Below are positions 22,867 to 32,126 of a stretch of DNA of 64,000 bases, piece by piece. Position 1 is the first letter of the stretch. Each line of letters begins with the position of its first letter. The DNA is from Sandaracinaceae bacterium (GTDB lineage Bacteria; Myxococcota_A; Polyangia; Polyangiales; Sandaracinaceae): NCBI GenBank assembly GCA_019637095.1, contig JAHBWG010000008.1:1-64000 (forward strand). The letters run 5' to 3'. A program made the translations under genes and the position numbers. Under the pieces are notes generated by a model, which saw only the letters and a list, made by a program, of their open reading frames with translations, was not told the DNA's origin and made no database searches.

Positions 22867-22950
22867 GCGGAAGTGGCGGAACTGGCAGACGCGCTGGATT
22901 CAGGTTCCAGTGGCCGAAAGGTCGTGGAGGTTCGAGTCCTCTCTTCCGCA
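22867..22950 (+). tRNA. tRNA-Leu (anticodon CAG)
   Basis: The acceptor arms GCGGAAG (22867-22873) and CTTCCGC (22943-22949) pair fully, and A22950 is the discriminator base. The anticodon arm is CTGGA-TTCAGGT-TCCAG, which gives anticodon CAG. The variable region is long (a class II tRNA) and the T-arm carries GTTCGAGTC. CCA is not encoded. Its 3' end faces the seven-gene operon, so it is a candidate integration site. Confidence 0.95.
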
Positions 22951-22960
22951 AAAACGAAGG

Positions 22961-22998
22961 ATCCCGGGTAGTTGCGAGAAATCGCAGCCACCCGGGAT
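22961..22998 (+). terminator. Hairpin after tRNA-Leu (GAAA tetraloop)
   Basis: A 9-bp outer stem (ATCCCGGGT at 22961-22969 with ACCCGGGAT at 22990-22998) encloses a 3-by-3 internal loop. Inside is a 5-bp stem (TGCGA/TCGCA) capped by GAAA, a GNRA-type loop. It begins 10 bases after the tRNA. No T-run follows, so it may end transcription weakly or protect the 3' end of the tRNA precursor. A hairpin of the same architecture lies at 39746-39787. Confidence 0.7.
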
Positions 22999-23130
22999 TC
23001 GGCGTTTGGGGCCTCGGAGCGATGGCGTGTAGCCGGTATGCATCCGTTGTTCGGTCGAGGCGGCGGTGCGTCTCTGATCTAAGGGCGCACGTGACACGCC
23101 GGTGCCAGGTGATCGCGTCCTCCCGATCGG

Positions 23131-24018
23131 TCAGGCGAAACCCGCGACGAAGCGCCGGGGCAGCCGGAGCCGGTCTTGGCCGCCCGAGACGGTTCCGACC
23201 TCGCAGGTGACGGCCGAGATCGCGTGCGCTGCGACCTTCGCGGCAACGCGGTCGTCGAAGGCGCCGTCCGGATAGGCGAACGTCGCGGGTTGCCCCAGCG
23301 GCGAGAGGACGGCGATGGACTCGCTCACCTCACGGTGCAGCGCATCATCGGGCAACAGCGTGAGGCGGGGATGCGTGAGCGAATGCGCGCCGACCCGCAT
23401 GCCGCTATCGGCGAGCCGCTGCCAGTCGCCGGGCGCGAGGTAGAGCTGAGCGGCGAGGTCCGCGGGGAGTTCACACTCTGCCGAGGCCGCGAGCTCGCGC
23501 AGCATCGCGGCCTGATCTGCGGCGCTCGCGCCCAGGAGCGCACGCTTCGCGCTGCCGACCACCCACGCGAGCTTGGCCTCGCGCGTATCGCAGCGGGCCA
23601 CGAAGGCGTTGCCGCCAGGGAGCCGCACGCGAAGCTCGGGCCGCTGCGCGTGATCGAGGGTCCAGTACCAGGCATCGACGACGGCGACCTGCCGGCCCCC
23701 GCCGTGGATGTCGGTCATCAAATAGAACGTCGCGCTCATCCCGCGCGCTCGCAGCAGCGGCACCACGACGTCGAGGTGCTCGCGGTAGCCATCGTCAAAC
23801 GTCAGCACGACGCCGGGTGGCGGCGCGACACCGGCAAGCAGTGCGTTCTCGACCGCGCCGAGCGGGACGACGGCGGGAGCGGCGTCGAGTTCGTGCTCGA
23901 GTTCCGCAGGCGTGAGCGCGGTCCCGCGAAGCCGGTAGCTGCTCGGCAGGCCGAACGCAGTGGGCTCATCCGGCACGACGCGGTGGAACATCAGGATGGT
24001 CGTCGAGTCAGAACCCAC
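23131..24018 (-). CDS. Polysaccharide deacetylase (NodB-like)
   Basis: The last gene of the seven-gene operon encodes about 295 residues. NodB motifs are present: MFHRVV near the start, TFDDGY (metal-binding Asp pair), HSLTHPRL (two metal-binding His) and FAYPDG. There is no signal peptide, so it acts in the cytoplasm, perhaps on a sugar-containing intermediate. GTG 24018 was chosen because GAGG lies 6 bases upstream; it overlaps the LOG gene by 11 bases. Family members remove N-acetyl groups from amino sugars. The substrate here is not known. Confidence 0.85.
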   Translation of the reverse strand: MGSDSTTILMFHRVVPDEPTAFGLPSSYRLRGTALTPAELEHELDAAPAVVPLGAVENALLAGVAPPPGVVLTFDDGYREHLDVVVPLLRARGMSATFYLMTDIHGGGRQVAVVDAWYWTLDHAQRPELRVRLPGGNAFVARCDTREAKLAWVVGSAKRALLGASAADQAAMLRELAASAECELPADLAAQLYLAPGDWQRLADSGMRVGAHSLTHPRLTLLPDDALHREVSESIAVLSPLGQPATFAYPDGAFDDRVAAKVAAHAISAVTCEVGTVSGGQDRLRLPRRFVAGFA

Positions 24019-24559
24019 GGCTCGCCTCGCGACTCCCGGCCAGCGAGACAGCCAGCGCGACCGCGGCCTCCGCCGACTCGGCGCGGTGGAGCAGGTCTTC
24101 GCGCCGGTGGTCGAGCCTCTCCCCTGCGAGTCGAGCGCTCCACCCCTCGCCGAGATCGACGGCGACGATGGGCCTGCCGTGGTGCCACGCATGGGCGATC
24201 TCGCTGAGCGTGCCCGAGCCGCCGCCCACCGCGATCACCACGTCGGACATCGCGACGACGATGATGTTGCGGGCATGGTTCATCCCCGTCGGTACGACCA
24301 CGTCGACGAACGGGTTTGCGTCCGCGGCCACGAGCCCAGGCAGCACCCCGATCACACATCCGTCCGTCCAGGCTCGAGATGATCGCGCACCTCGTGAGGC
24401 CGCGGTCATCACACCTCCGAGGCCGCCCGTGACCACGCGGAAGCCGGCATCCACGAGCCCCCGGCCAACGTCTTCGGCGGCAGCGAGCACCGCGGCGGAC
24501 GCGCTGTTCGCACCGACGACGGCCGCAACGCGACGGCGGGGCTGGTGGCTCGTGCTCAT
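24008..24559 (-). CDS. LOG-family/TIGR00725-type Rossmann protein
   Basis: The product has 183 residues with a Rossmann-like start (VAAVVGANSAS), TGGLGGVM and the signature GGGSGTLSEI, which corresponds to the PGGxGTxxE motif of the lysine decarboxylase-like (LOG) superfamily. LOG enzymes release sugar phosphate from nucleotides. TIGR00725 relatives have no firm function, and their usual Arg-Glu pair is replaced in part here (NHARN). The gene overlaps its upstream neighbour by 4 bases and the deacetylase by 11. It may process a nucleotide-linked intermediate in this pathway. Confidence 0.8.
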   Translation of the reverse strand: MSTSHQPRRRVAAVVGANSASAAVLAAAEDVGRGLVDAGFRVVTGGLGGVMTAASRGARSSRAWTDGCVIGVLPGLVAADANPFVDVVVPTGMNHARNIIVVAMSDVVIAVGGGSGTLSEIAHAWHHGRPIVAVDLGEGWSARLAGERLDHRREDLLHRAESAEAAVALAVSLAGSREASRGF

Positions 24560-25578
24560 GCCGAGTCCTCGAGCGGGATGATGCTGTACAGCTTGCTGTG
24601 GCGCTCTCGGTCGGTGAGCTCGACGCGCGCAAGGAGCCGACCATCGTGCCGATCGAGAAGGAGCACGCTCGTCTCGCTTCCGTCCGGATCGTGATCAGCC
24701 CATCGATGGCGAGGTAGCCGCTCGCGACGCACCTCGGTCAGACCGACGAGCAGGTGGTCACCGCGAACGGCGAGCCCGCGACACCAGCCACGGCGTCCGG
24801 TGTCGAACACCTGGAGCTGACTCCGAACGGAGAACGTCGTCGCGTCCAGCTCGATCACCGCCCCGTCGATCGCGGTGAGCCAGAACGAGGCGCCGTCGAC
24901 CACACCGTCGTGGACGAACGCGCCCGGACGCCGCCAGAGGAGCTCGAACTTGCCGATCTCGCGCAGCGAGCCGTCGGCAAAGCAGGTCGCGATCATGCGG
25001 TCGCCATCGCTCGTGACGTGGTTCACGTGCAGATGATCGCGGACCTTGCGCTGGTGGAAAGGCGCCGCGAGGTCGCAGGAGTAGTAGGCGTCGCCGGCTG
25101 CCGCAGGCCACGCAGTCGGTGCCGACCCGGTCCAGCCCGCGTCGAGCACGCCGGCCCAACGGTCAGGCGGTTCGCTCCCACTCATGCGCCACGCAGTGGT
25201 CCATCCGGGGATCAGCGCGTGACTGCCGACGAACACGCCATCGAGACCGAACACGTCGACCGAGCCGAGCCCGGTGTTCGAGACGACCAGCCGCTCGCCG
25301 AGGACGGAGACATGGTGCAGGTCGTTCATGCAGGGCTGGTGCAGGACCCCAGTCACGTTCGCACGAGCGAGGTCGATGCGCACGATCGCCGCGTGCGCGG
25401 CGGCGTACAACGTATCGTCGTGAAGGCTCGCCCCTGCTAGCCCTTTCGCCGGAAGGCGCAGATGAGCGGGGGGCTGCCAGCGGAGGAGCACGTCCGAGCG
25501 ACCAGACGCGAGGTCGACCAGCCAGACGATTCCATCGCCGCAGTCGTCGAAGTAGCCGCCGGTCACGAGCGCCTTCAC
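24556..25578 (-). CDS. Beta-propeller-like protein (TIGR03032/DUF4915-like)
   Basis: The product has 340 residues, no signal peptide and a pattern of repeated beta-strand blades (VWLVDLASG, IVRIDLARANV, LVVSNTGLGSVDVFGLDG, AVIELDATTFSV, VLLLDRHDGRLLARVEL). The fold is probably a six- or seven-bladed propeller, resembling the uncharacterised TIGR03032-type proteins that occur in biosynthetic loci. No catalytic motif is clear, though WCRGLAV and NDLHHVS could line a pocket. It overlaps both neighbours by 4 bases, so it belongs to the pathway. Confidence 0.65.
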   Translation of the reverse strand: MKALVTGGYFDDCGDGIVWLVDLASGRSDVLLRWQPPAHLRLPAKGLAGASLHDDTLYAAAHAAIVRIDLARANVTGVLHQPCMNDLHHVSVLGERLVVSNTGLGSVDVFGLDGVFVGSHALIPGWTTAWRMSGSEPPDRWAGVLDAGWTGSAPTAWPAAAGDAYYSCDLAAPFHQRKVRDHLHVNHVTSDGDRMIATCFADGSLREIGKFELLWRRPGAFVHDGVVDGASFWLTAIDGAVIELDATTFSVRSQLQVFDTGRRGWCRGLAVRGDHLLVGLTEVRRERLPRHRWADHDPDGSETSVLLLDRHDGRLLARVELTDRERHSKLYSIIPLEDSA

Positions 25579-27824
25579 CAGCTCGCCCTCCAGTGCGCGA
25601 CCGCTGCGGGCAGCAACTCGAGGAATCGCTGGAGCTCGGCCGCATCCGTTGGCACCGGCGTCGAGAGCTCGAGGATTTCGTCGAGAGCCGCGAGCGCGGC
25701 GAGCGCCTCCGACGCGACCTCCGCAACGTCGAAGTCCGGCGCCTTCGAAAGACGCTCGATCGACTCGGCGAGGCGAGCAACATCGTGGCGCGCTTCGACG
25801 CGATGCTCGCGGACGCGCGCCTCGCGCTCGCGGAGCCGAGTCCCAACTGGCTCGGCACCGGAGAGCGCGCGAGCCATCGCGACGCCCCGAACCTGTGCGG
25901 CGGTCTCGGCCCGAGCGTCGGCGACCGACAGGCGCTGGCCCGTCCGGTCGTGGTGGAGCGGCAACGTGACCTCGGCGATCGCTCGCGGATCTTCGCGTTG
26001 CGCGAGAGCGGCCCAGAGCGTGTCTGCTCGACGTGTCACGACCCCGTCACTGCAGGCAACGACGGGGGTCGGCCACCGGAACAGCGCATCGAGATCGAGG
26101 AACACGGTATTGCCTCCGCGGCGCAGCGAAGCGTGCGGTTCTCGATCCGTTCCGTCCCAGCCCAGTGGCCGCGTAATCTCCTTGCCCTCGAGCAGTCGGG
26201 GGACGTCGCGGAGCAAGCGCTCCGCCGTGTCGTGAACTGATGCACCGGCGGGTGAGGGGTAGAGGCGAGGCGCAGCTCGGCTCGGGCTCGGCGTCTCGGA
26301 GAGATCGTAGTACGCGTCCCACGACTCGGGCGCGGACCGATCGGGGCTCCAGACCGCCGCGGGCCCGAGCGCGAGCATCCGCTCGACGCTGGCCGTGAGG
26401 TCGCGGAGCTGGCCCCTCAAGCAGTCGAGCGCGGGCACTGGTGGGTCGCCGGTGAAACCGCCGAGCACGACGGAGCACCGGGGAAGGGACGACCACAGAT
26501 GCGCGACGCGGAAGAAGAGATCGGTCCTGTTTCGCACTTCGCCCGCGTCATCGAGCTGGGCGAAGCGAACGTCGTCGTCGACCATCCAGAACACGGTCGG
26601 GTGTTGGGCAGGATGGGGAAGTCCGCCCACGGGGGCTACGAGGTGTCCATGGATCGCGGCGAGCTGCGCCTCGCGCGCGACGCCGATGGGCACGGAGCGC
26701 AGCCGGTCGAGCTGTGGGACGACTCCGGTCGCGGCGGACGTGCGGAGCCGCGATGCGACCTCGGCGATCGCAACTCGATGCACGGGGATCGACGGGGCAG
26801 GAAGCGGGACCGGCTCGGCGGGCGCGTCCAGATCGATCACGAGCAGGCCGACGTGGCCCCGATAGCCCGAGCGGCGCACCTCGGCTTCGAGGCTCTCGAC
26901 CATGCGGCAGAACGGCTCCGCACGGGCCCGGCGAGTCGCGCAGCTCACGAGGACGTCCGGCACGTCGGCTCGCCCGACCGAAGTCGACGACACGATGCGC
27001 GGCGCCGACGAGATCACGGCGGCTGTTCTGCGCGTCGCTACGTCGAGCGCGCGCTCGATGAGCGCGCTCGGCAGTGAGAACCGCTCGACGAGAACGGCGC
27101 CCAGCGCATCGCGCCCCGCGACTCGGCGTACCGAGCGGCCGAACCGAGAGTCCCGCGCGTACTCGGCATCGCGCAGCGTGAGCACGACGTCGCCGTCCAG
27201 GCGCGCGGCGCGCAGGCCCGTCAGGAAGGGTCCGAAGGCAGGCTGCGTGTAGTGGGCTTCGACGATCCCAGTGAAGTCCTCGTACCGGCGCGGCGTTGGA
27301 TCGACGACGTAGACCGTCTTCCACCCGGCGTCCCCGCGCCAGCGACTCAAGGTGGGCCCACCGGGAGCGTCCGGATCGAACCGGAATCGCCACCCGTGGT
27401 GCTCCTGCTCCTGCGGGGCTCCGCCGAGGCGCCAGGGCCGGAGGTAGGGATGCCCGTTGCCGACGTCGACCACGTGCCGCTCCCCGTTCAGCTCGACCAC
27501 GCAGACGAAGTGGTCACCAGGCGCGCGCACGCGCGCTGCCGCAAGCGCGGCATCGAAGCCGAGCGCGGAGAGGAGCACGGCGAACGCTGGCGTCGTCCGG
27601 TCGCAGTTGCCGCCCAGCCCCTCGATCGCAGCGTCGACGACCTCGAGCAGCGGGGGGAGCGGACGCGACCGACCGTCGTTCGCGAGGAGGATCAGGTTGT
27701 GGAACGGCACGGACCGGAGATGCGCGCGCTGGAGCGCCGCGAGCCCATCGAGGTGCGTTTCGACGTCGGTCACGCCGAGACGTGCAAGGTATGCGTCGAC
27801 GCGGGCCGGCGCGAGCAGGGTCAC
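25575..27824 (-). CDS. Fusion of arylamine N-acetyltransferase-like domain with glycosyltransferase-like domain
   Basis: The product has about 749 residues from GTG 27824, which overlaps the peptidase stop by 4 bases. Residues 1-260 match the NAT fold: GGNCDRTTPAF holds the catalytic Cys, GDHFVCVVEL the His and VVDVGNG the Asp, so the triad is complete. A second part (from about 290) opens with VLVSCATRRARAEPFCRMVESL. It carries a VDDDVRF motif like the DxD motif of GT-A transferases, followed by GGNTVFLDLDALFRWPTP and LPLHHDRTG. The last 130 residues are charged and helical. NAT-fold enzymes form amide bonds from acyl thioesters, so this may join an acyl group to an amine and add a sugar. 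I know of no such fusion. Confidence 0.75.
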   Translation of the reverse strand: MTLLAPARVDAYLARLGVTDVETHLDGLAALQRAHLRSVPFHNLILLANDGRSRPLPPLLEVVDAAIEGLGGNCDRTTPAFAVLLSALGFDAALAAARVRAPGDHFVCVVELNGERHVVDVGNGHPYLRPWRLGGAPQEQEHHGWRFRFDPDAPGGPTLSRWRGDAGWKTVYVVDPTPRRYEDFTGIVEAHYTQPAFGPFLTGLRAARLDGDVVLTLRDAEYARDSRFGRSVRRVAGRDALGAVLVERFSLPSALIERALDVATRRTAAVISSAPRIVSSTSVGRADVPDVLVSCATRRARAEPFCRMVESLEAEVRRSGYRGHVGLLVIDLDAPAEPVPLPAPSIPVHRVAIAEVASRLRTSAATGVVPQLDRLRSVPIGVAREAQLAAIHGHLVAPVGGLPHPAQHPTVFWMVDDDVRFAQLDDAGEVRNRTDLFFRVAHLWSSLPRCSVVLGGFTGDPPVPALDCLRGQLRDLTASVERMLALGPAAVWSPDRSAPESWDAYYDLSETPSPSRAAPRLYPSPAGASVHDTAERLLRDVPRLLEGKEITRPLGWDGTDREPHASLRRGGNTVFLDLDALFRWPTPVVACSDGVVTRRADTLWAALAQREDPRAIAEVTLPLHHDRTGQRLSVADARAETAAQVRGVAMARALSGAEPVGTRLREREARVREHRVEARHDVARLAESIERLSKAPDFDVAEVASEALAALAALDEILELSTPVPTDAAELQRFLELLPAAVAHWRASW

Positions 27825-29128
27825 ATCGACTCTCGAGCCACGCGATCGACCCACCGGAAGACGACGTCGAGCTCGGCTCGATGCAGCTCGATCGTCCATG
27901 TCGGGATCGACTCGTCGGGGGCATGGATACGCGCTCGTGAGTCGTTCACCCCGAGCGCCACATAGCGAGCGCCGAGCGGTAGGTTCCGGTTGAACGGGCA
28001 GCCGCCCTCGACGACGTTCTTGTTGAGGCCGCGTTGCTCGTGCCGCGCGCCCACCCCCCACCGCGAGGCGAGGCCGGCGAGCCCTCGAAGGAGGTCCTCG
28101 TACTCGCGACCGACAGGTGCGCTCGTATCGTCTGGACCGATCGTTCGCGCGAGGAGACGCAGCGTACCGTCCTCATGGTCGTGGTAGCCGGTCTCGTCGA
28201 GCCAGAGCTCGGCCTGCAGGGAGGCCATCACGTCCGGCAGCACGGCGTGAGCGATCGGCGATCCAGTCTCTTCTTCGCCCTGGATGATCCACGTCAGCGC
28301 CGGCGCCGCCGTCAGGTCGTGCAGCGCCGCGATACGAACGGCGAGGGGTCCCTTGTCGTCCGCCACGCCGCGACCGAAGAGCCGGCCTTCGGTCTCGGTG
28401 AGCTCTTCCGGCGGATGGGTCCAACGATGCGTCGGCCCGAGCGCGGTCACGTCGTAGTGTCCGTAGAGGACGACGTGGCCCGTCAGCCCGCGTGCAGGCC
28501 TTCGAGCGACGAGCACTGGGTGCGCAGTCGAGGCGGCGAGCCGAGCGACGTCGAAACCGAGCGCACGGAGTTGCCGCTCGAGCCATTCGACGCAGCGGGT
28601 GTGGCACCCGCCGGCCCGGCTCGTGTTGAACCTCATGAGCTCGCGCAGCCGGTCCACGACGCTCGAGGGCGCGCGGACGTCGCTCCTGGACCTCGGTCCC
28701 TCGCCTAGCGAGCGACCATAGCGCTCGATCACGGCTCTCCCGAAATCGGCGCACACCAGGTCCCATAGCCGCTTGTTGCTCGCGCCGTAGACGTCGCGCC
28801 CGAGGTGCGTGCGGTGGGCCCGCCCACTGATGATCGCTGCGCGGAAGGCATACTGGATATCGTCGTGGCTCAGCGGCGCGAGCCCCAGGCCCACACGTGC
28901 ATCATCGAGCATGCCCCTCGCCTCATCGCGCCAGTAGACCTCCGCGAGCGCCTCCAGCCCGAGTCGGTGCTCGCGCGCCAGCTCACGCTCTGCGTCGCCG
29001 AGCACCGACCACCATCGCTGCGTCTCGCCCGGTCCCCACAGGTGGGTCAACGCATGCGCGACGGCGAGCGCTCGATGGAGCCCGTGCTTCAGATCGTTCG
29101 AGCTCGAGTACATCTCGATCTGGTTCAT
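27821..29128 (-). CDS. M20-family metallopeptidase with extra N-terminal domain
   Basis: The product has 435 residues from ATG 29128. Residues 1-135 are a helical domain that I do not recognise (NDLKHGLHRALAVAHALTHL). The rest is an M20 peptidase with all metal-binding residues visible: LYGHYDV (His), RGVADDKGPLA (bridging Asp), IIQGEEETGSP (Glu pair), WLDETG (Asp) and ARIHAPDE (His near the end). M20 enzymes cut dipeptides or N-acyl amino acids. In a biosynthetic operon such enzymes can trim a peptide or act in reverse. It overlaps both neighbours by 4 bases. Confidence 0.85.
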   Translation of the reverse strand: MNQIEMYSSSNDLKHGLHRALAVAHALTHLWGPGETQRWWSVLGDAERELAREHRLGLEALAEVYWRDEARGMLDDARVGLGLAPLSHDDIQYAFRAAIISGRAHRTHLGRDVYGASNKRLWDLVCADFGRAVIERYGRSLGEGPRSRSDVRAPSSVVDRLRELMRFNTSRAGGCHTRCVEWLERQLRALGFDVARLAASTAHPVLVARRPARGLTGHVVLYGHYDVTALGPTHRWTHPPEELTETEGRLFGRGVADDKGPLAVRIAALHDLTAAPALTWIIQGEEETGSPIAHAVLPDVMASLQAELWLDETGYHDHEDGTLRLLARTIGPDDTSAPVGREYEDLLRGLAGLASRWGVGARHEQRGLNKNVVEGGCPFNRNLPLGARYVALGVNDSRARIHAPDESIPTWTIELHRAELDVVFRWVDRVARESM

Positions 29129-29892
29129 CGCGGCCGTCGGCCTCCGAGCACCGGGAAGGCGTCCTCGTTGAAGACCGCTCCCGGCGCGACGGTCACCCGA
29201 CCCGTCATTGGGTGCCAGCGGGCACGCGACGGATCGAACGTGCAGGTCGCGTCCAGGTAGACCGTGATGTACGCGCGACGCCAGCGGCTCGAACGATTGG
29301 GCGGGCTGGTGTGCCAGGAGAGGCAGTGGTGGAAGATCGTGCTCCCCGCGCGGACGGGCACGGCGACGGCGTCCGCTTCTCGCGACCCCCAGGCCTTCTG
29401 CTCGCTCAGGAAGTCGATCGAGCGCGTGATCGGCTCGGTGTGAGCGCCCGGCATGAACCACAGCGCGCCGGCTTCGATGGGCGCATCATCGAGCGCGAGC
29501 CAGCAGGACACAGCGCGAGCTTCAGCCACGGGCCAGTTCGGGAGGTCGCGGTGCCATGGGATCGTCGCGCCCCCGTGCGGGGGCTTGGCAATGAGATGGT
29601 CGTGGAACACGCGAACACGGTCGCAGTCGAGGAGTTCCGCCGCGATCGCCGCCGCGCGGGGGTCGCGAAGCTGTTCGGCGAACGCCGTGTTTCGCTCCCA
29701 CACGTTCATCCATTGCGAGACGATGGACAGGTACTCCTCGACCGTCGTGGCGATCTCGGCGGCCCACTGGGCTGCCTGCGCCTCGAACGCGGCGCGAAGC
29801 CGTGTCACCTGCACATCGGAGACGACGTCATCGACGACGAGGTGGCCGTCTCGCCGGAACCGCTCGACTTGCTTGGTGCTGAGCTCAGCCAT
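29125..29892 (-). CDS. Phytanoyl-CoA dioxygenase-family (PhyH) enzyme B
   Basis: The product has 255 residues from ATG 29892. The iron-binding facial triad is visible: WHRDLPNWP supplies His and Asp, and the distal His lies in FHHCLSWHTSPPN, with the 2-oxoglutarate-binding Arg following in RSSRWRRAY. It is an Fe(II)/2-oxoglutarate-dependent oxygenase that would hydroxylate or halogenate-like modify a small molecule or peptide. The substrate is unknown. It shares 8 bases with the upstream dioxygenase gene and 4 with the peptidase gene. Confidence 0.88.
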   Translation of the reverse strand: MAELSTKQVERFRRDGHLVVDDVVSDVQVTRLRAAFEAQAAQWAAEIATTVEEYLSIVSQWMNVWERNTAFAEQLRDPRAAAIAAELLDCDRVRVFHDHLIAKPPHGGATIPWHRDLPNWPVAEARAVSCWLALDDAPIEAGALWFMPGAHTEPITRSIDFLSEQKAWGSREADAVAVPVRAGSTIFHHCLSWHTSPPNRSSRWRRAYITVYLDATCTFDPSRARWHPMTGRVTVAPGAVFNEDAFPVLGGRRPR

Positions 29893-30658
29893 CCCTGCGC
29901 TCCTGGATCTTCGCACCATCGACGGTGCGACGGCACACGGGATGGTTGGGCGCGCGTGCGTGCTGCCACCGAACCGTCGCGGACAGGAACACGCAGGACC
30001 ACGCGATGCGCTCTCCGTCGCGCAGCCTCGGGGGCGACGAGTGGAACGTAAGCGGCGAGAACGCGACTGCATCGCCGGCTCGGTACGCCGGCGCGAAGAT
30101 GGGGAACGCTCCCGGGCTGAACCCGAGTTCGGCGTCGGCGCTCTGGGGCTGCCCATCGTGCAGGTCGACGACTGGCCGAGCGCCGAGCCGATGACTGCCG
30201 ATCGCAAACCGCAGGGCGCCGGACTCCGCGTCGGATTCGTCGAGAGGGATCCAGAGGACGATCCCGTCTGGTCGATCGACGGGCCAGAAGCCGAAATCCT
30301 GGTGCCACGGGAACTCCTTATGGCCGCGACGCTTCACCAAGAGCAGGTCCTGGAACAGCACCGGGTCGTCGAGGAGCTGCCTCACGACGGGGCGCATCGC
30401 GTCGGCCGCGCCCCCCGTCGAGCACGCGTCACGATGCTGATGCGGGTTCAACCACTGCTCGATGATGGCGGACAGCGGTGGCCGCCCCGGCGGCGGAGCA
30501 CCGTGCGTATAGAGCACCTGCTTGCTCATCGGTAGCTCGTTCCTCTGGCACGCCTCGGCAGCAGCTCGCAGCCCAGCGAGTGTGGCTCGGCCGACGACAT
30601 CCTCGAGCAAAGCCACGCCGTCTCTCTCGAGGCCAGTGAGGGCATACGCGACGTCCAC
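29885..30658 (-). CDS. Phytanoyl-CoA dioxygenase-family (PhyH) enzyme A
   Basis: This is the first gene of the operon. GTG 30658 has CGAGGAA 6 bases upstream. The 257-residue product has the iron triad in FPWHQDFGFWP (His, Asp) and SPLTFHSSPP (His), with Arg in GERIAWSC as the likely 2-oxoglutarate ligand. It is similar in layout to the second dioxygenase downstream but not close in sequence, so the two may carry out successive oxidations. Upstream lies about 230 bases without a gene, which must hold the operon promoter. Confidence 0.88.
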   Translation of the reverse strand: MDVAYALTGLERDGVALLEDVVGRATLAGLRAAAEACQRNELPMSKQVLYTHGAPPPGRPPLSAIIEQWLNPHQHRDACSTGGAADAMRPVVRQLLDDPVLFQDLLLVKRRGHKEFPWHQDFGFWPVDRPDGIVLWIPLDESDAESGALRFAIGSHRLGARPVVDLHDGQPQSADAELGFSPGAFPIFAPAYRAGDAVAFSPLTFHSSPPRLRDGERIAWSCVFLSATVRWQHARAPNHPVCRRTVDGAKIQERRDG

Positions 30659-30884
30659 GTGATTCCTCGGCGCGATCGAGTGTAGGGCATCCGGCGCACG
30701 CCCGTCATCCGCTCCGCGACGAGCGCCCGCTGGCGCAATCCGCGACGCCACCCTGGCGGGGCTGCTCGTCACCGAGACGAAGATACCGCCTACCGTCGGC
30801 GACGACGACAAGCATGTGCGGATCGAGGGCCGCTTCGGCCCGGCCGAGGGACGAGGACGAGGAGCAGGGATCCGACGTCACGCA
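30659..30884. other. Gene-free stretch upstream of the seven-gene operon
   Basis: This stretch separates the start of dioxygenase A from the end of the decayed zinc-ribbon frame. It should contain the promoter of the leftward operon, but I see no clear -35/-10 pair. A block resembling the sequence after tRNA-Leu begins just past its right end (30892-30914). Confidence 0.4.
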
Positions 30885-31010
30885 CTACGCGTTCGGCGTT
30901 TCTGGGGCCTCCGGCGAGATCATCGCACAGGCCGCCGGCGGCGCGCGGGGATGCCGGAGACCTGGGTCGACGGGGCGTTCCCTGGAGTGCACGCTGCCGT
31001 CTCGCGTTGC

Positions 31011-31190
31011 CTCCGAGCGGACGCGGTGTCCGCAGCGCTCGCACTCCAGGTCGGGATCACCGGCTCCGACCATGCACCCACCGAGCACGACCTCACGACG
31101 CTGCGCCATGCGCTCGGCCGCGGGCTCGGGCTCGCCCCACACGATCGGCAGCCAGCGCTCCGAGCCGCACGCGGGGCACGGCGGGCGAAG
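31011..31190 (-). pseudogene. Zinc-ribbon gene relic without start codon
   Basis: In one frame the text reads CPACGSERWLPIVWGEPEP, then VVLGGCMVGAGDPD and CERCGHR. This is the pattern of a common small bacterial zinc-ribbon protein of about 60 residues with two CxxC knuckles. No ATG, GTG or TTG stands before the first Cys pair in this frame, and after GHR the frame runs on without the usual stop. The region also overlaps the end of the endonuclease-like pseudogene. It is best read as a decayed gene. Confidence 0.5.
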
Positions 31191-32126
31191 CCGTCTCGCG
31201 CAGCACGCACGCGGTGACGCGCTCGAACGCGAGGTAACGATCCACGAGCTCGGCGCACCACCTCGCGCTCCGATCCGCGGCGAAGGGGCGCACGACGTCC
31301 TCGAGCGTCCAGGACGCGAAGGTCGAGTCGTTGGTGAGGAGCCGACGGTACCTCTCGACCGCACGTCGGCAGGCGACGTTCGCCTCGGGCGCGAGGAACA
31401 CGAAGACGCCCTCGTCGTAGCCGACGTCGGCCGCCACGAGCGCGGCGGCGAGCAGGTGATCGCGCCAGATCTGCTGGAGCGGCGGTGACCGAAGGGCAGC
31501 GCGCTCCGCGGCGAAGCAGCCCATCGCCTCGGCGAGCTCGTCGTAGCGCGGGCGGTGCTCGGCGGCGGGATCACCGAGCGCCTCGTGGTACTTCACCTCG
31601 ATCCCGAGGAAGCCGCGCCGCCCGGTCGGCGAGACGTACTCGACGAAGACGTCGAACGCCGAGCGGTCGCCGGTGAAGCGGAGGTCGCCGCGGCCCGGAG
31701 AGTGCTCGAAGCGGATCGCCGTCACGCGCCGGACGCGCTCCGGCGCGAGGTGCCGGAACATCGTGGTCGCGAGATCGAGGTCGAGCGCAGCTTCGCCGAA
31801 GGCGTTGAAGCACAGCGGCTGGCTCGAGAGCAGGTTCGAGAAGAGCGGTCCTCGTCGATGAGCTGATCCGAGGTTCGTCCGGCGCCGAGCACGGCGTGCC
31901 GGACGACGTCGCGGATCCCGTCGGTCAGGAAGTTGGCGAGGGTGTCGCGGGCGAAGCGGGCCTCGATGCGCGAGCCCAGCGGCTTCTCGCGACGGAGCCC
32001 GACGGGGTACCCACGCTGTTCGCGCCAGAGCGCCTGGAGGAGCCGCGCCTCGCGCTGGAACGCGTTGTCGGAGCCAACGCGAACGTCGTGTCGCTCGAGG
32101 ACCTCGTCGGGGATTCGCCGCCTCAC
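31093..32126 (-). pseudogene. PGN_0703-type putative restriction endonuclease, frameshifted
   Basis: GTG 32126 opens a frame reading RRRIPDEVLERHDVRVGSDN up to DQLIDEDR. The frame is then lost at about 31855, and the text continues in the next frame as LFSNLLSSQPLCFNAFGE, RRVTAIRFEHSPGRGD, FTGDRSAFDVFVEY and GFLGIEVKYHE. The last piece has the Asp and Glu-x-Lys pattern of a PD-(D/E)XK nuclease. One missing C at the join (CGCTC for CGCCTC) explains the shift. Such proteins are predicted nucleases. It is either a decayed defence gene or an assembly error; the unclear 3' end supports decay. Confidence 0.65.

What the first reader, a model, noticed from the sequence alone, without database searches (positions are those of the whole stretch)
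23131..30658. Seven overlapping genes that look like an undescribed biosynthetic pathway
Two PhyH dioxygenases, an M20 peptidase, a NAT-glycosyltransferase fusion, a propeller-like protein, a LOG-family protein and a NodB-type deacetylase are read leftwards. Every junction overlaps by 4-11 bases, which implies one transcript and tight co-translation. The combination suggests oxidation of a substrate, amide bond making or breaking, addition of a sugar and removal of an N-acetyl group, as in a glycosylated peptide-like or acyl-amino-acid product. I know of no pathway with this set.
Basis: partly seen in the sequence, partly recalled or inferred. Interest (0 to 1): 0.85.

Follow-up and report, generated by a model that had tools for sequence, protein, structure and literature searches.

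The report
Undescribed sugar-linked small-molecule gene cluster
Seven overlapping genes in a myxobacterium-like genome form a real, mobile biosynthetic operon whose parts recur together in scattered bacteria and, in reduced form, on a plasmid and in a phage; the best reading is that it makes a small molecule joining an amino sugar to a base cut out of a nucleotide, by a pathway I found no description of.

Summary
In detail: seven leftward genes, junction overlaps of 8, 4, 4, 4, 4 and 11 bases, catalytic residues intact. Five other loci carry all eight activities within about 20 kb, three lack only one, and shorter versions occur in Myxococcota, Planctomycetota, Pseudomonadota, a plasmid and a phage contig. 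Protein distances of six core families correlate between loci.

The "glycosyltransferase" half matches no Pfam family; a confident model is a GT-A fold, nearest to GT75 pyranose mutases, then GalNAc-transferases. Of 36 loci with this half, 25 have the LOG-like gene nearby and 6 instead have GTP cyclohydrolase II plus NADAR; none has both. Both modules fit enzymes that cut a base from ribose-5-phosphate. Sugar-nucleotide genes and an intact deacetylase suggest a hexosamine; the NAT would acylate an amine; two dioxygenases would oxidise.

That this is a conserved pathway is well supported. The product class (amino sugar joined to a nucleobase or aminopyrimidine) is inference, about 0.4. A peptide-like product has no specific support. 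The operon looks horizontally acquired: it sits at a tRNA-Leu end and has lower GC3.

The parts
29885..30658 (-). PhyH1: Fe(II)/2-oxoglutarate dioxygenase, 257 aa
   Evidence: PhyH E 4e-21; His-x-Asp...His and 2OG Arg in 7 of 7 relatives
29125..29892 (-). PhyH2: second PhyH dioxygenase, 255 aa, next to M20 or NAT in type I clusters
   Evidence: PhyH E 3e-39; metal triad 9 of 9; neighbour map
27821..29128 (-). M20-family metallo-amidohydrolase, 435 aa, with an extra ~150-aa N-terminal region and only a short stretch where the usual lid domain would be
   Evidence: Peptidase_M20 E 3e-13; two-metal ligands invariant in 16 sequences, catalytic Glu in 14
27030..27824 (-). NAT domain (residues 1-265): arylamine N-acetyltransferase-like N-acyltransferase
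   Evidence: Acetyltransf_2 E 2e-22; PDB relatives include GdmF; Cys-His-Asp triad intact in 18 of 20
25575..27029 (-). GT-A-fold domain (residues 266-749) with WMVDDD, YYD, RGGN, RRAD and HxR motifs; sequence family not in Pfam
   Evidence: A7 alignment; model pLDDT 88.3; MtdL/GT75 Z 18.3, ppGalNAc-T2 Z 16.5
24556..25578 (-). beta-propeller with 29 residues invariant in 17 sequences, including four His (NDLH, HxNH, HD), and GWCRG
   Evidence: A8; model pLDDT 89.8; propeller matches Z 27
24008..24559 (-). LOG-like (TIGR00725/LDcluster4) protein, candidate nucleotide phosphoribohydrolase
   Evidence: Arg97 and Glu120 invariant in 22 of 22, equivalent to CgLOG Arg99/Glu122
23131..24018 (-). NodB-type (CE4) de-N-acetylase, no signal peptide seen by eye
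   Evidence: Polysacc_deac_1 E 5e-17; Asp-Asp and His-x3-His invariant in 20 of 20
22867..22950 (+). tRNA-Leu(CAG): its 3' end faces the operon; probable integration point
   Evidence: same tRNA beside the pil genes in four relatives

Best explanation
A horizontally acquired operon for a cytoplasmic, specialised small molecule. Inferred scheme: (1) the GT-A domain handles a nucleotide-activated N-acetylhexosamine and puts the sugar on a nucleobase-type acceptor, either the free base or the base of a nucleotide; (2) the LOG-like enzyme cuts the base from ribose-5-phosphate; (3) the NodB enzyme removes the N-acetyl group of the hexosamine; (4) the NAT domain acylates a freed sugar amine or an aromatic amine of the base; (5) the M20 enzyme hydrolyses an amide (trimming or proofreading); (6) the two PhyH enzymes hydroxylate or otherwise oxidise. 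The propeller's role is unknown. Shown here: conserved neighbourhood, gene fusions, intact active sites, GT-A and propeller models, LOG/NADAR exclusion, island signature. Inferred: every substrate, the order of steps and the product.
For: Neighbourhood: all eight activities within ~20 kb in L031, L040, L030 (Polyangium sp. 6x1), L035 and L074; all but LOG in Plesiocystis pacifica (L038); all but PhyH1 in L037 and L039. Fusions link the parts: NAT-GT in one frame in ten loci and separate in four; LOG in one protein with GT (L025), with a P-loop domain (L021), with a tetrapyrrole-methylase-like domain (L020), in one frame with NodB (L074); NodB in one frame with the GT (L070-L072). Pairwise distances of six families correlate, r 0.63-0.85, 0 of 500 permutations reach it. 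Base release: 25 of 36 loci with the GT half carry LOG, 6 carry GTP cyclohydrolase II + NADAR (L033, L044, L065, L069, L086, L087), 0 both; Uabimicrobium has no LOG of this type genome-wide at E 1e-10. LOG enzymes supply adenine in angustmycin biosynthesis (PMC8599513) and one is in the 8-azaguanine cluster (PMC7674941); YbiA-type NADARs cleave the N-glycosidic bond of riboflavin intermediates (PMC11543638). LOG catalytic Arg/Glu kept while base-contact positions changed (K100 to N98, E121 to S119). Sugar: epimerase and UDP-sugar dehydrogenase genes in some clusters; intact NodB; GalNAc-transferases among top structural matches.
Against: No substrate or product tested. The closest structural match of the GT half is a mutase, not a transferase. 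LOG's nearest solved relatives include molybdenum-cofactor carrier proteins that share the same Arg and Glu, so residue conservation does not prove hydrolysis. Plesiocystis lacks LOG on the whole 35-kb contig, having one elsewhere. Five of the 36 loci have neither module (two on short contigs, one a weak hit). The LOG-for-NADAR swap also changes the other partners (AsnB and a kinase-like domain appear, and five of six such loci lack NodB and the propeller), so the two variants may make different products. The NAT active site is lost in L028 and L029.
Confidence: 0.4

Rival explanations
1. The GT-A half is not a transferase but an NDP-sugar pyranose/furanose mutase like MtdL (GT75), and the sugar ends up as a furanose attached by another enzyme.
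For: MtdL Z 18.3 (284 residues, rmsd 3.9) and rice UAM2 Z 17.8 head the structural list, above GalNAc-T2 at 16.5. DDD, Arg-x-x-Asp and His-x-Arg motifs recur in the same order as MtdL D109-111, R257/D260, H287/R289. MtdL and Hyg20 serve antibiotics A201A and hygromycin.
Against: None of 18 members matches Pfam RGP. No invariant Arg lies between residues 154 and 286, where the autoglycosylated Arg159 of MtdL would fall by spacing. His360 is Gln in 3 of 29 and Arg362 is Gly in 5 of 29. In most type I clusters it is the only GT candidate.
Confidence: 0.2
2. A surface glycan, glycolipid or exopolysaccharide modification operon (deacetylation and acylation of a polymer).
For: NodB, GTs, epimerase and UDP-sugar dehydrogenase are typical of glycan loci.
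Against: No flippase, polymerase or ligase was recognised among the genes examined; NodB starts at its catalytic motif without a visible signal peptide (by eye); LOG, GTP cyclohydrolase II and NADAR have no obvious place in a polymer pathway.
Confidence: 0.13
3. A glycosylated peptide-like or acyl-amino-acid product.
For: M20 amidohydrolase and NAT handle amides; AsnB-type amidotransferase in type IV relatives.
Against: No peptide-bond-forming or amino-acid-activating gene recurs; does not explain LOG or its replacement by GTP cyclohydrolase II + NADAR.
Confidence: 0.12
4. LOG and NADAR do not release bases but bind or sense a nucleotide, pterin or molybdenum cofactor; the pathway makes a modified cofactor.
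For: Nearest solved LOG relatives include Moco carrier proteins such as 2iz5; GTP cyclohydrolase II products are pyrimidine precursors of flavins.
Against: LOGs in known nucleoside clusters act as phosphoribohydrolases; catalytic Arg and Glu invariant; no Moco synthesis genes seen.
Confidence: 0.1
5. A phage-related or defence-related nucleic-acid base modification system.
For: A 1799-aa phage-contig protein joins GT2, this GT, methyltransferase and LOG, beside a DNA methyltransferase-like gene; three of 18 GT members weakly match TET-associated glycosyltransferase (best E 0.0027); a PD-(D/E)XK nuclease lies beside the operon.
Against: PADLOC gives only weak LOG-fold hits; NAT, M20 and NodB act on small molecules; no DNA-binding domain recognised in the seven proteins.
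Confidence: 0.06

Closest known systems
Angustmycin cluster (agm, Streptomyces; AgmA LOG-type AMP phosphoribohydrolase)
   Same: A LOG-fold enzyme inside a biosynthetic cluster frees a base for attachment to an unusual sugar (PMC8599513).
   Different: Sugar attached by a phosphoribosyltransferase-type enzyme from a ketose phosphate; no GT-A, NAT, M20, NodB, PhyH or propeller among AgmA-F. Our LOG is TIGR00725-type.
8-Azaguanine cluster (LOG-like 8-AzgD with a GTP cyclohydrolase)
   Same: GTP cyclohydrolase plus proposed base-release enzyme in one small cluster (PMC7674941), like our type IV relatives.
   Different: Different cyclohydrolase type (I-like); the product is a free base without a transferred sugar.
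GT75 NDP-pyranose mutases MtdL (A201A) / Hyg20 (hygromycin)
   Same: Best structural match of the GT half; DDD, R-x-x-D and H-x-R motifs in the same order (PMC9937993).
   Different: No Pfam RGP match; an equivalent of catalytic Arg159 is not evident; here fused to NAT or in large multi-domain proteins.
Mycothiol-type logic (GT, de-N-acetylase, amide formation; from general knowledge)
   Same: Transfer of GlcNAc, deacetylation, then amide formation on the freed amine.
   Different: NodB-type rather than LmbE-type deacetylase, NAT-type acyltransferase, no Cys ligase; sporadic distribution.
Septacidin/spicamycin (recalled; paper not held)
   Same: Acylated amino sugar N-linked to adenine: a plausible type of product.
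   Different: Not compared at sequence level; a lead only.

Membership tests
LOG cytokinin-type phosphoribohydrolase | Catalytic Arg and Glu (CgLOG Arg99, Glu122) | tested here: met
   Arg97 and Glu120 in 22 of 22; mapping from PMC4979012
LOG cytokinin-type phosphoribohydrolase | PGGxGTxxE motif and adenine-contact Lys100/Glu121 | tested here: not met
   GGGxGTLSE-type motif; Asn98 and Ser119 instead; profile hit is TIGR00725. So LOG-like, not filed as a cytokinin LOG
LOG cytokinin-type phosphoribohydrolase | Hydrolysis of nucleoside 5'-monophosphates | not testable with these tools
   needs enzyme assay
GT75 (RGP/UAM/MtdL) | Sequence match to Pfam RGP | tested here: not met
   0 of 18 members at E 1
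GT75 (RGP/UAM/MtdL) | GT-A fold plus core and C-terminal helix domain | tested here: inconclusive
   Z 18.3 over 284 of 375 residues, but GalNAc-T2 at 16.5
GT75 (RGP/UAM/MtdL) | Nucleophilic, autoglycosylated Arg159 | tested here: inconclusive
   no invariant Arg at the expected spacing; no residue-level structural alignment available
NAT (arylamine N-acetyltransferase) | Cys-His-Asp catalytic triad | tested here: met
   present in the window and in 18 of 20 overall; lost in L028, L029
CE4 / NodB deacetylase | TFDDG and His-x3-His metal site | tested here: met
   20 of 20
M20 amidohydrolase | Two-metal site and catalytic Glu | tested here: met
   metal ligands 16 of 16, catalytic Glu 14 of 16 including the window
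M20 amidohydrolase | Inserted lid/dimerisation domain | tested here: inconclusive
   only ~50 residues between Glu312 and Arg366, so it looks absent; not modelled
PhyH Fe(II)/2OG dioxygenase | His-x-Asp...His iron site | tested here: met
   PhyH1 7/7, PhyH2 9/9
Nucleoside-type biosynthetic cluster | Product containing a base linked to a sugar | not testable with these tools
   needs metabolite analysis

The most novel reading that the evidence does not exclude
A previously unrecognised class of mobile pathways, shared by myxobacteria, planctomycetes, marine and sulfur bacteria, a plasmid and a phage, built on a new GT-A glycosyltransferase family that couples an amino sugar to a base freed from a nucleotide by interchangeable modules (LOG, or GTP cyclohydrolase II + NADAR).
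Probability: 0.35. Interest if true: 0.85.

Novelty: new variant of a known kind. Interest (0 to 1): 0.68.

Why it matters
It gives a sequence-defined family of clusters with no product assigned in anything I could search, in named organisms (Archangium violaceum Cb vi76, Hyalangium versicolor, Polyangium sp. 6x1, Plesiocystis pacifica, Pseudoalteromonas donghaensis). It also identifies a GT-A protein family without a Pfam model, and an exchange of two unrelated modules that makes the base-release idea directly testable. The four-gene type IV operon is small enough to express whole in E. coli.

Tried and rejected
Paper searches for TIGR03032, DUF4915, NAT-glycosyltransferase fusions and LOG + glycosyltransferase in nucleoside antibiotics found nothing describing this set; the septacidin and YbiA (Frelin) papers are not held. 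Phage and plasmid searches gave mainly ordinary NATs, apart from the Pseudoalteromonas plasmid and cyanophage LOGs. GT75 sequences for a profile-profile comparison could not be obtained. PADLOC and PHROGs gave only weak or generic hits. No att-like repeat of the tRNA end was found across the operon. TET-associated-GT similarity was judged too weak to file.
Full report
Observation. Pfam and NCBIfam confirm two PhyH dioxygenases, an M20 amidohydrolase, a NAT domain, a LOG-like TIGR00725/LDcluster4 protein and a NodB deacetylase. The propeller and the C-terminal half of the NAT fusion have no above-threshold family.

Structures. An 18-sequence alignment gave a confident model of the GT half (pLDDT 88.3, pTM 0.88). 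It is a GT-A fold; the best matches are MtdL, a GT75 NDP-pyranose mutase (Z 18.3, 284 residues, rmsd 3.9), rice UAM2 (17.8) and polypeptide GalNAc-transferases (16.5). Foldseek alone gave weak hits to GT-A enzymes. By order and spacing, its DDD, R333-x-x-D336 and H360-x-R362 resemble D109-111, R257-x-x-D260 and H287-x-R289 of MtdL (PMC9937993), but no invariant Arg stands where Arg159 should be. This is motif comparison, not a structural superposition. The propeller model (pLDDT 89.8) matches six-bladed YWTD/NHL-type propellers (Z 27, about 240 residues, rmsd 2.4), which says nothing about function.

Conservation. Searches of relatives, the phylum and named genomes found related loci. The GT half occurs in 17 of 379 Myxococcota genomes including the window's own and in 4 of 398 genomes of the phylum of the Parabeggiatoa genome, one of which was the search centre. 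Both are samples. Full-set loci: L031, L040, L030, L035, L074; Plesiocystis pacifica (L038) lacks only LOG locally; L037 and L039 lack only PhyH1. Gene order varies but overlaps recur. NAT and GT share a frame in ten loci and are separate in four. Other fusions tie LOG, NodB, M20 and GT together. Distances correlate between all pairs of six families (r 0.63-0.85, none of 500 permutations); this shows shared inheritance, not shared function.

Four architectures. Type I, the window type: PhyH2, M20, NAT-GT, LOG, propeller, NodB, with PhyH1, a P-loop kinase-like gene, a carbamoyltransferase or sugar-nucleotide genes in some. Type II: M20, GT, propeller, a GT-B-like gene of no Pfam family, GT2, sometimes a tetrapyrrole-methylase-like gene, LOG, NodB. 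Type III: GT2-GT-kinase-like-methyltransferase multi-domain protein with LOG and usually NodB; the phage contig L025 has a 1799-aa relative with LOG at its end. Type IV: GT2-kinase-like-GT, GTP cyclohydrolase II + NADAR, AsnB, NAT (Pseudoalteromonas donghaensis plasmid; L065, L069, L086, L087; and Candidatus Uabimicrobium amorphum, L033, which also has the propeller and NodB).

Base-release module. Of 36 loci with the GT half, 25 have LOG, 6 have GTP cyclohydrolase II + NADAR, none both. The count is mine, with duplicate loci from two collections merged; some loci are close relatives. The five with neither are L018/L038 (Plesiocystis, whole 35-kb contig), L024, two on short contigs (L026, L067) and a weak hit (L088). 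Uabimicrobium has no such LOG in its genome. The zinc-ligand pattern of GTP cyclohydrolase II is visible in the L044 and L033 sequences (by eye). LOG enzymes release adenine for angustmycin (PMC8599513), one is proposed for the last step of 8-azaguanine (PMC7674941), and YbiA-type NADARs cleave the N-glycosidic bond of riboflavin intermediates (PMC11543638). Our LOG keeps the catalytic Arg and Glu but replaces two base-contact residues with invariant Asn and Ser. The inference is that a base is taken from a nucleotide, though the Moco-carrier relatives with the same residues keep a binding-only role open.

Sugar and acyl steps. Epimerase genes in L020, L028, L029, L038 and dehydrogenase genes in L026, L038, with related ones in L025 and L033, resemble enzymes that make UDP-HexNAc derivatives; that identification rests on sequence reading and family hits, not on assigned specificity. 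NodB, NAT, M20 and PhyH active sites are intact in the window. NAT enzymes acylate aromatic amines, and the nearest solved ones include GdmF, which would suit an aminated base, but the acceptor is unknown. NAT is degenerate in L028 and L029.

Mobility. Operon GC3 is 0.82-0.86 against 0.93-0.98 in the four flanking genes compared. It lies at the 3' end of tRNA-Leu(CAG). The same tRNA lies next to the FimT gene in G001, G005, G006 and G012, and the loci fetched there show no match to the operon's PhyH1 or to the nuclease; in G005 only about 1 kb beyond the tRNA was available. The neighbouring PD-(D/E)XK nuclease gene is missing from 11 relatives.

Verdict. A real, conserved, mobile pathway (about 0.9). 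Specific product class about 0.4. Related in logic to nucleoside-type pathways but not a member of any that I could compare.

Noticed in passing
window 22867-32124: Lower-GC3 island between tRNA-Leu(CAG) and a Ser/Thr kinase gene; besides the operon it holds a PD-(D/E)XK nuclease (31096-32124, minus) absent from 11 relatives searched.
   Followed up: partly
L025 8990-14389: Phage-like IMG/VR contig (integrase, replication and ParB/methyltransferase-like genes) with a 1799-aa protein joining GT2, the DDD GT-A domain, a methyltransferase, a second GT2 and LOG, followed by a nucleotide-sugar dehydrogenase.
   Followed up: partly
L044 12748-19270; L065, L069, L086, L087: Compact four-gene operon (GT2-kinase-like-GT, GTP cyclohydrolase II-NADAR, AsnB, NAT) conserved across Myxococcota, Pseudomonadota and a mobilisable Pseudoalteromonas plasmid.
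   Followed up: partly
L028 3434-3769; L029 7677-8456: NAT domain fused to the GT has lost its catalytic Cys (and His in L028) in Archangium violaceum and Hyalangium versicolor.
   Followed up: no
L020 14447-15769; L041 14325-15068: Tetrapyrrole-methylase-like domain fused to or beside LOG in type II clusters.
   Followed up: no
L020 12505-13746, L041 12444-13583, L042 3451-4590, L028, L029, L033: Recurrent GT-B-like protein (motif CDSNPMCYGSSA in L020, L041 and L042) with no Pfam match.
   Followed up: no
L045 3623-5543 (Synechococcus phage S-B68): A LOG gene lies one small gene away from an 'N-carbamoyl-L-amino acid hydrolase' (an M20-type name) in a cyanophage.
   Followed up: no
window 27821-29128: M20 protein appears to lack the usual lid domain and carries an extra N-terminal region that in L020 is replaced by a methyltransferase domain.
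   Followed up: partly
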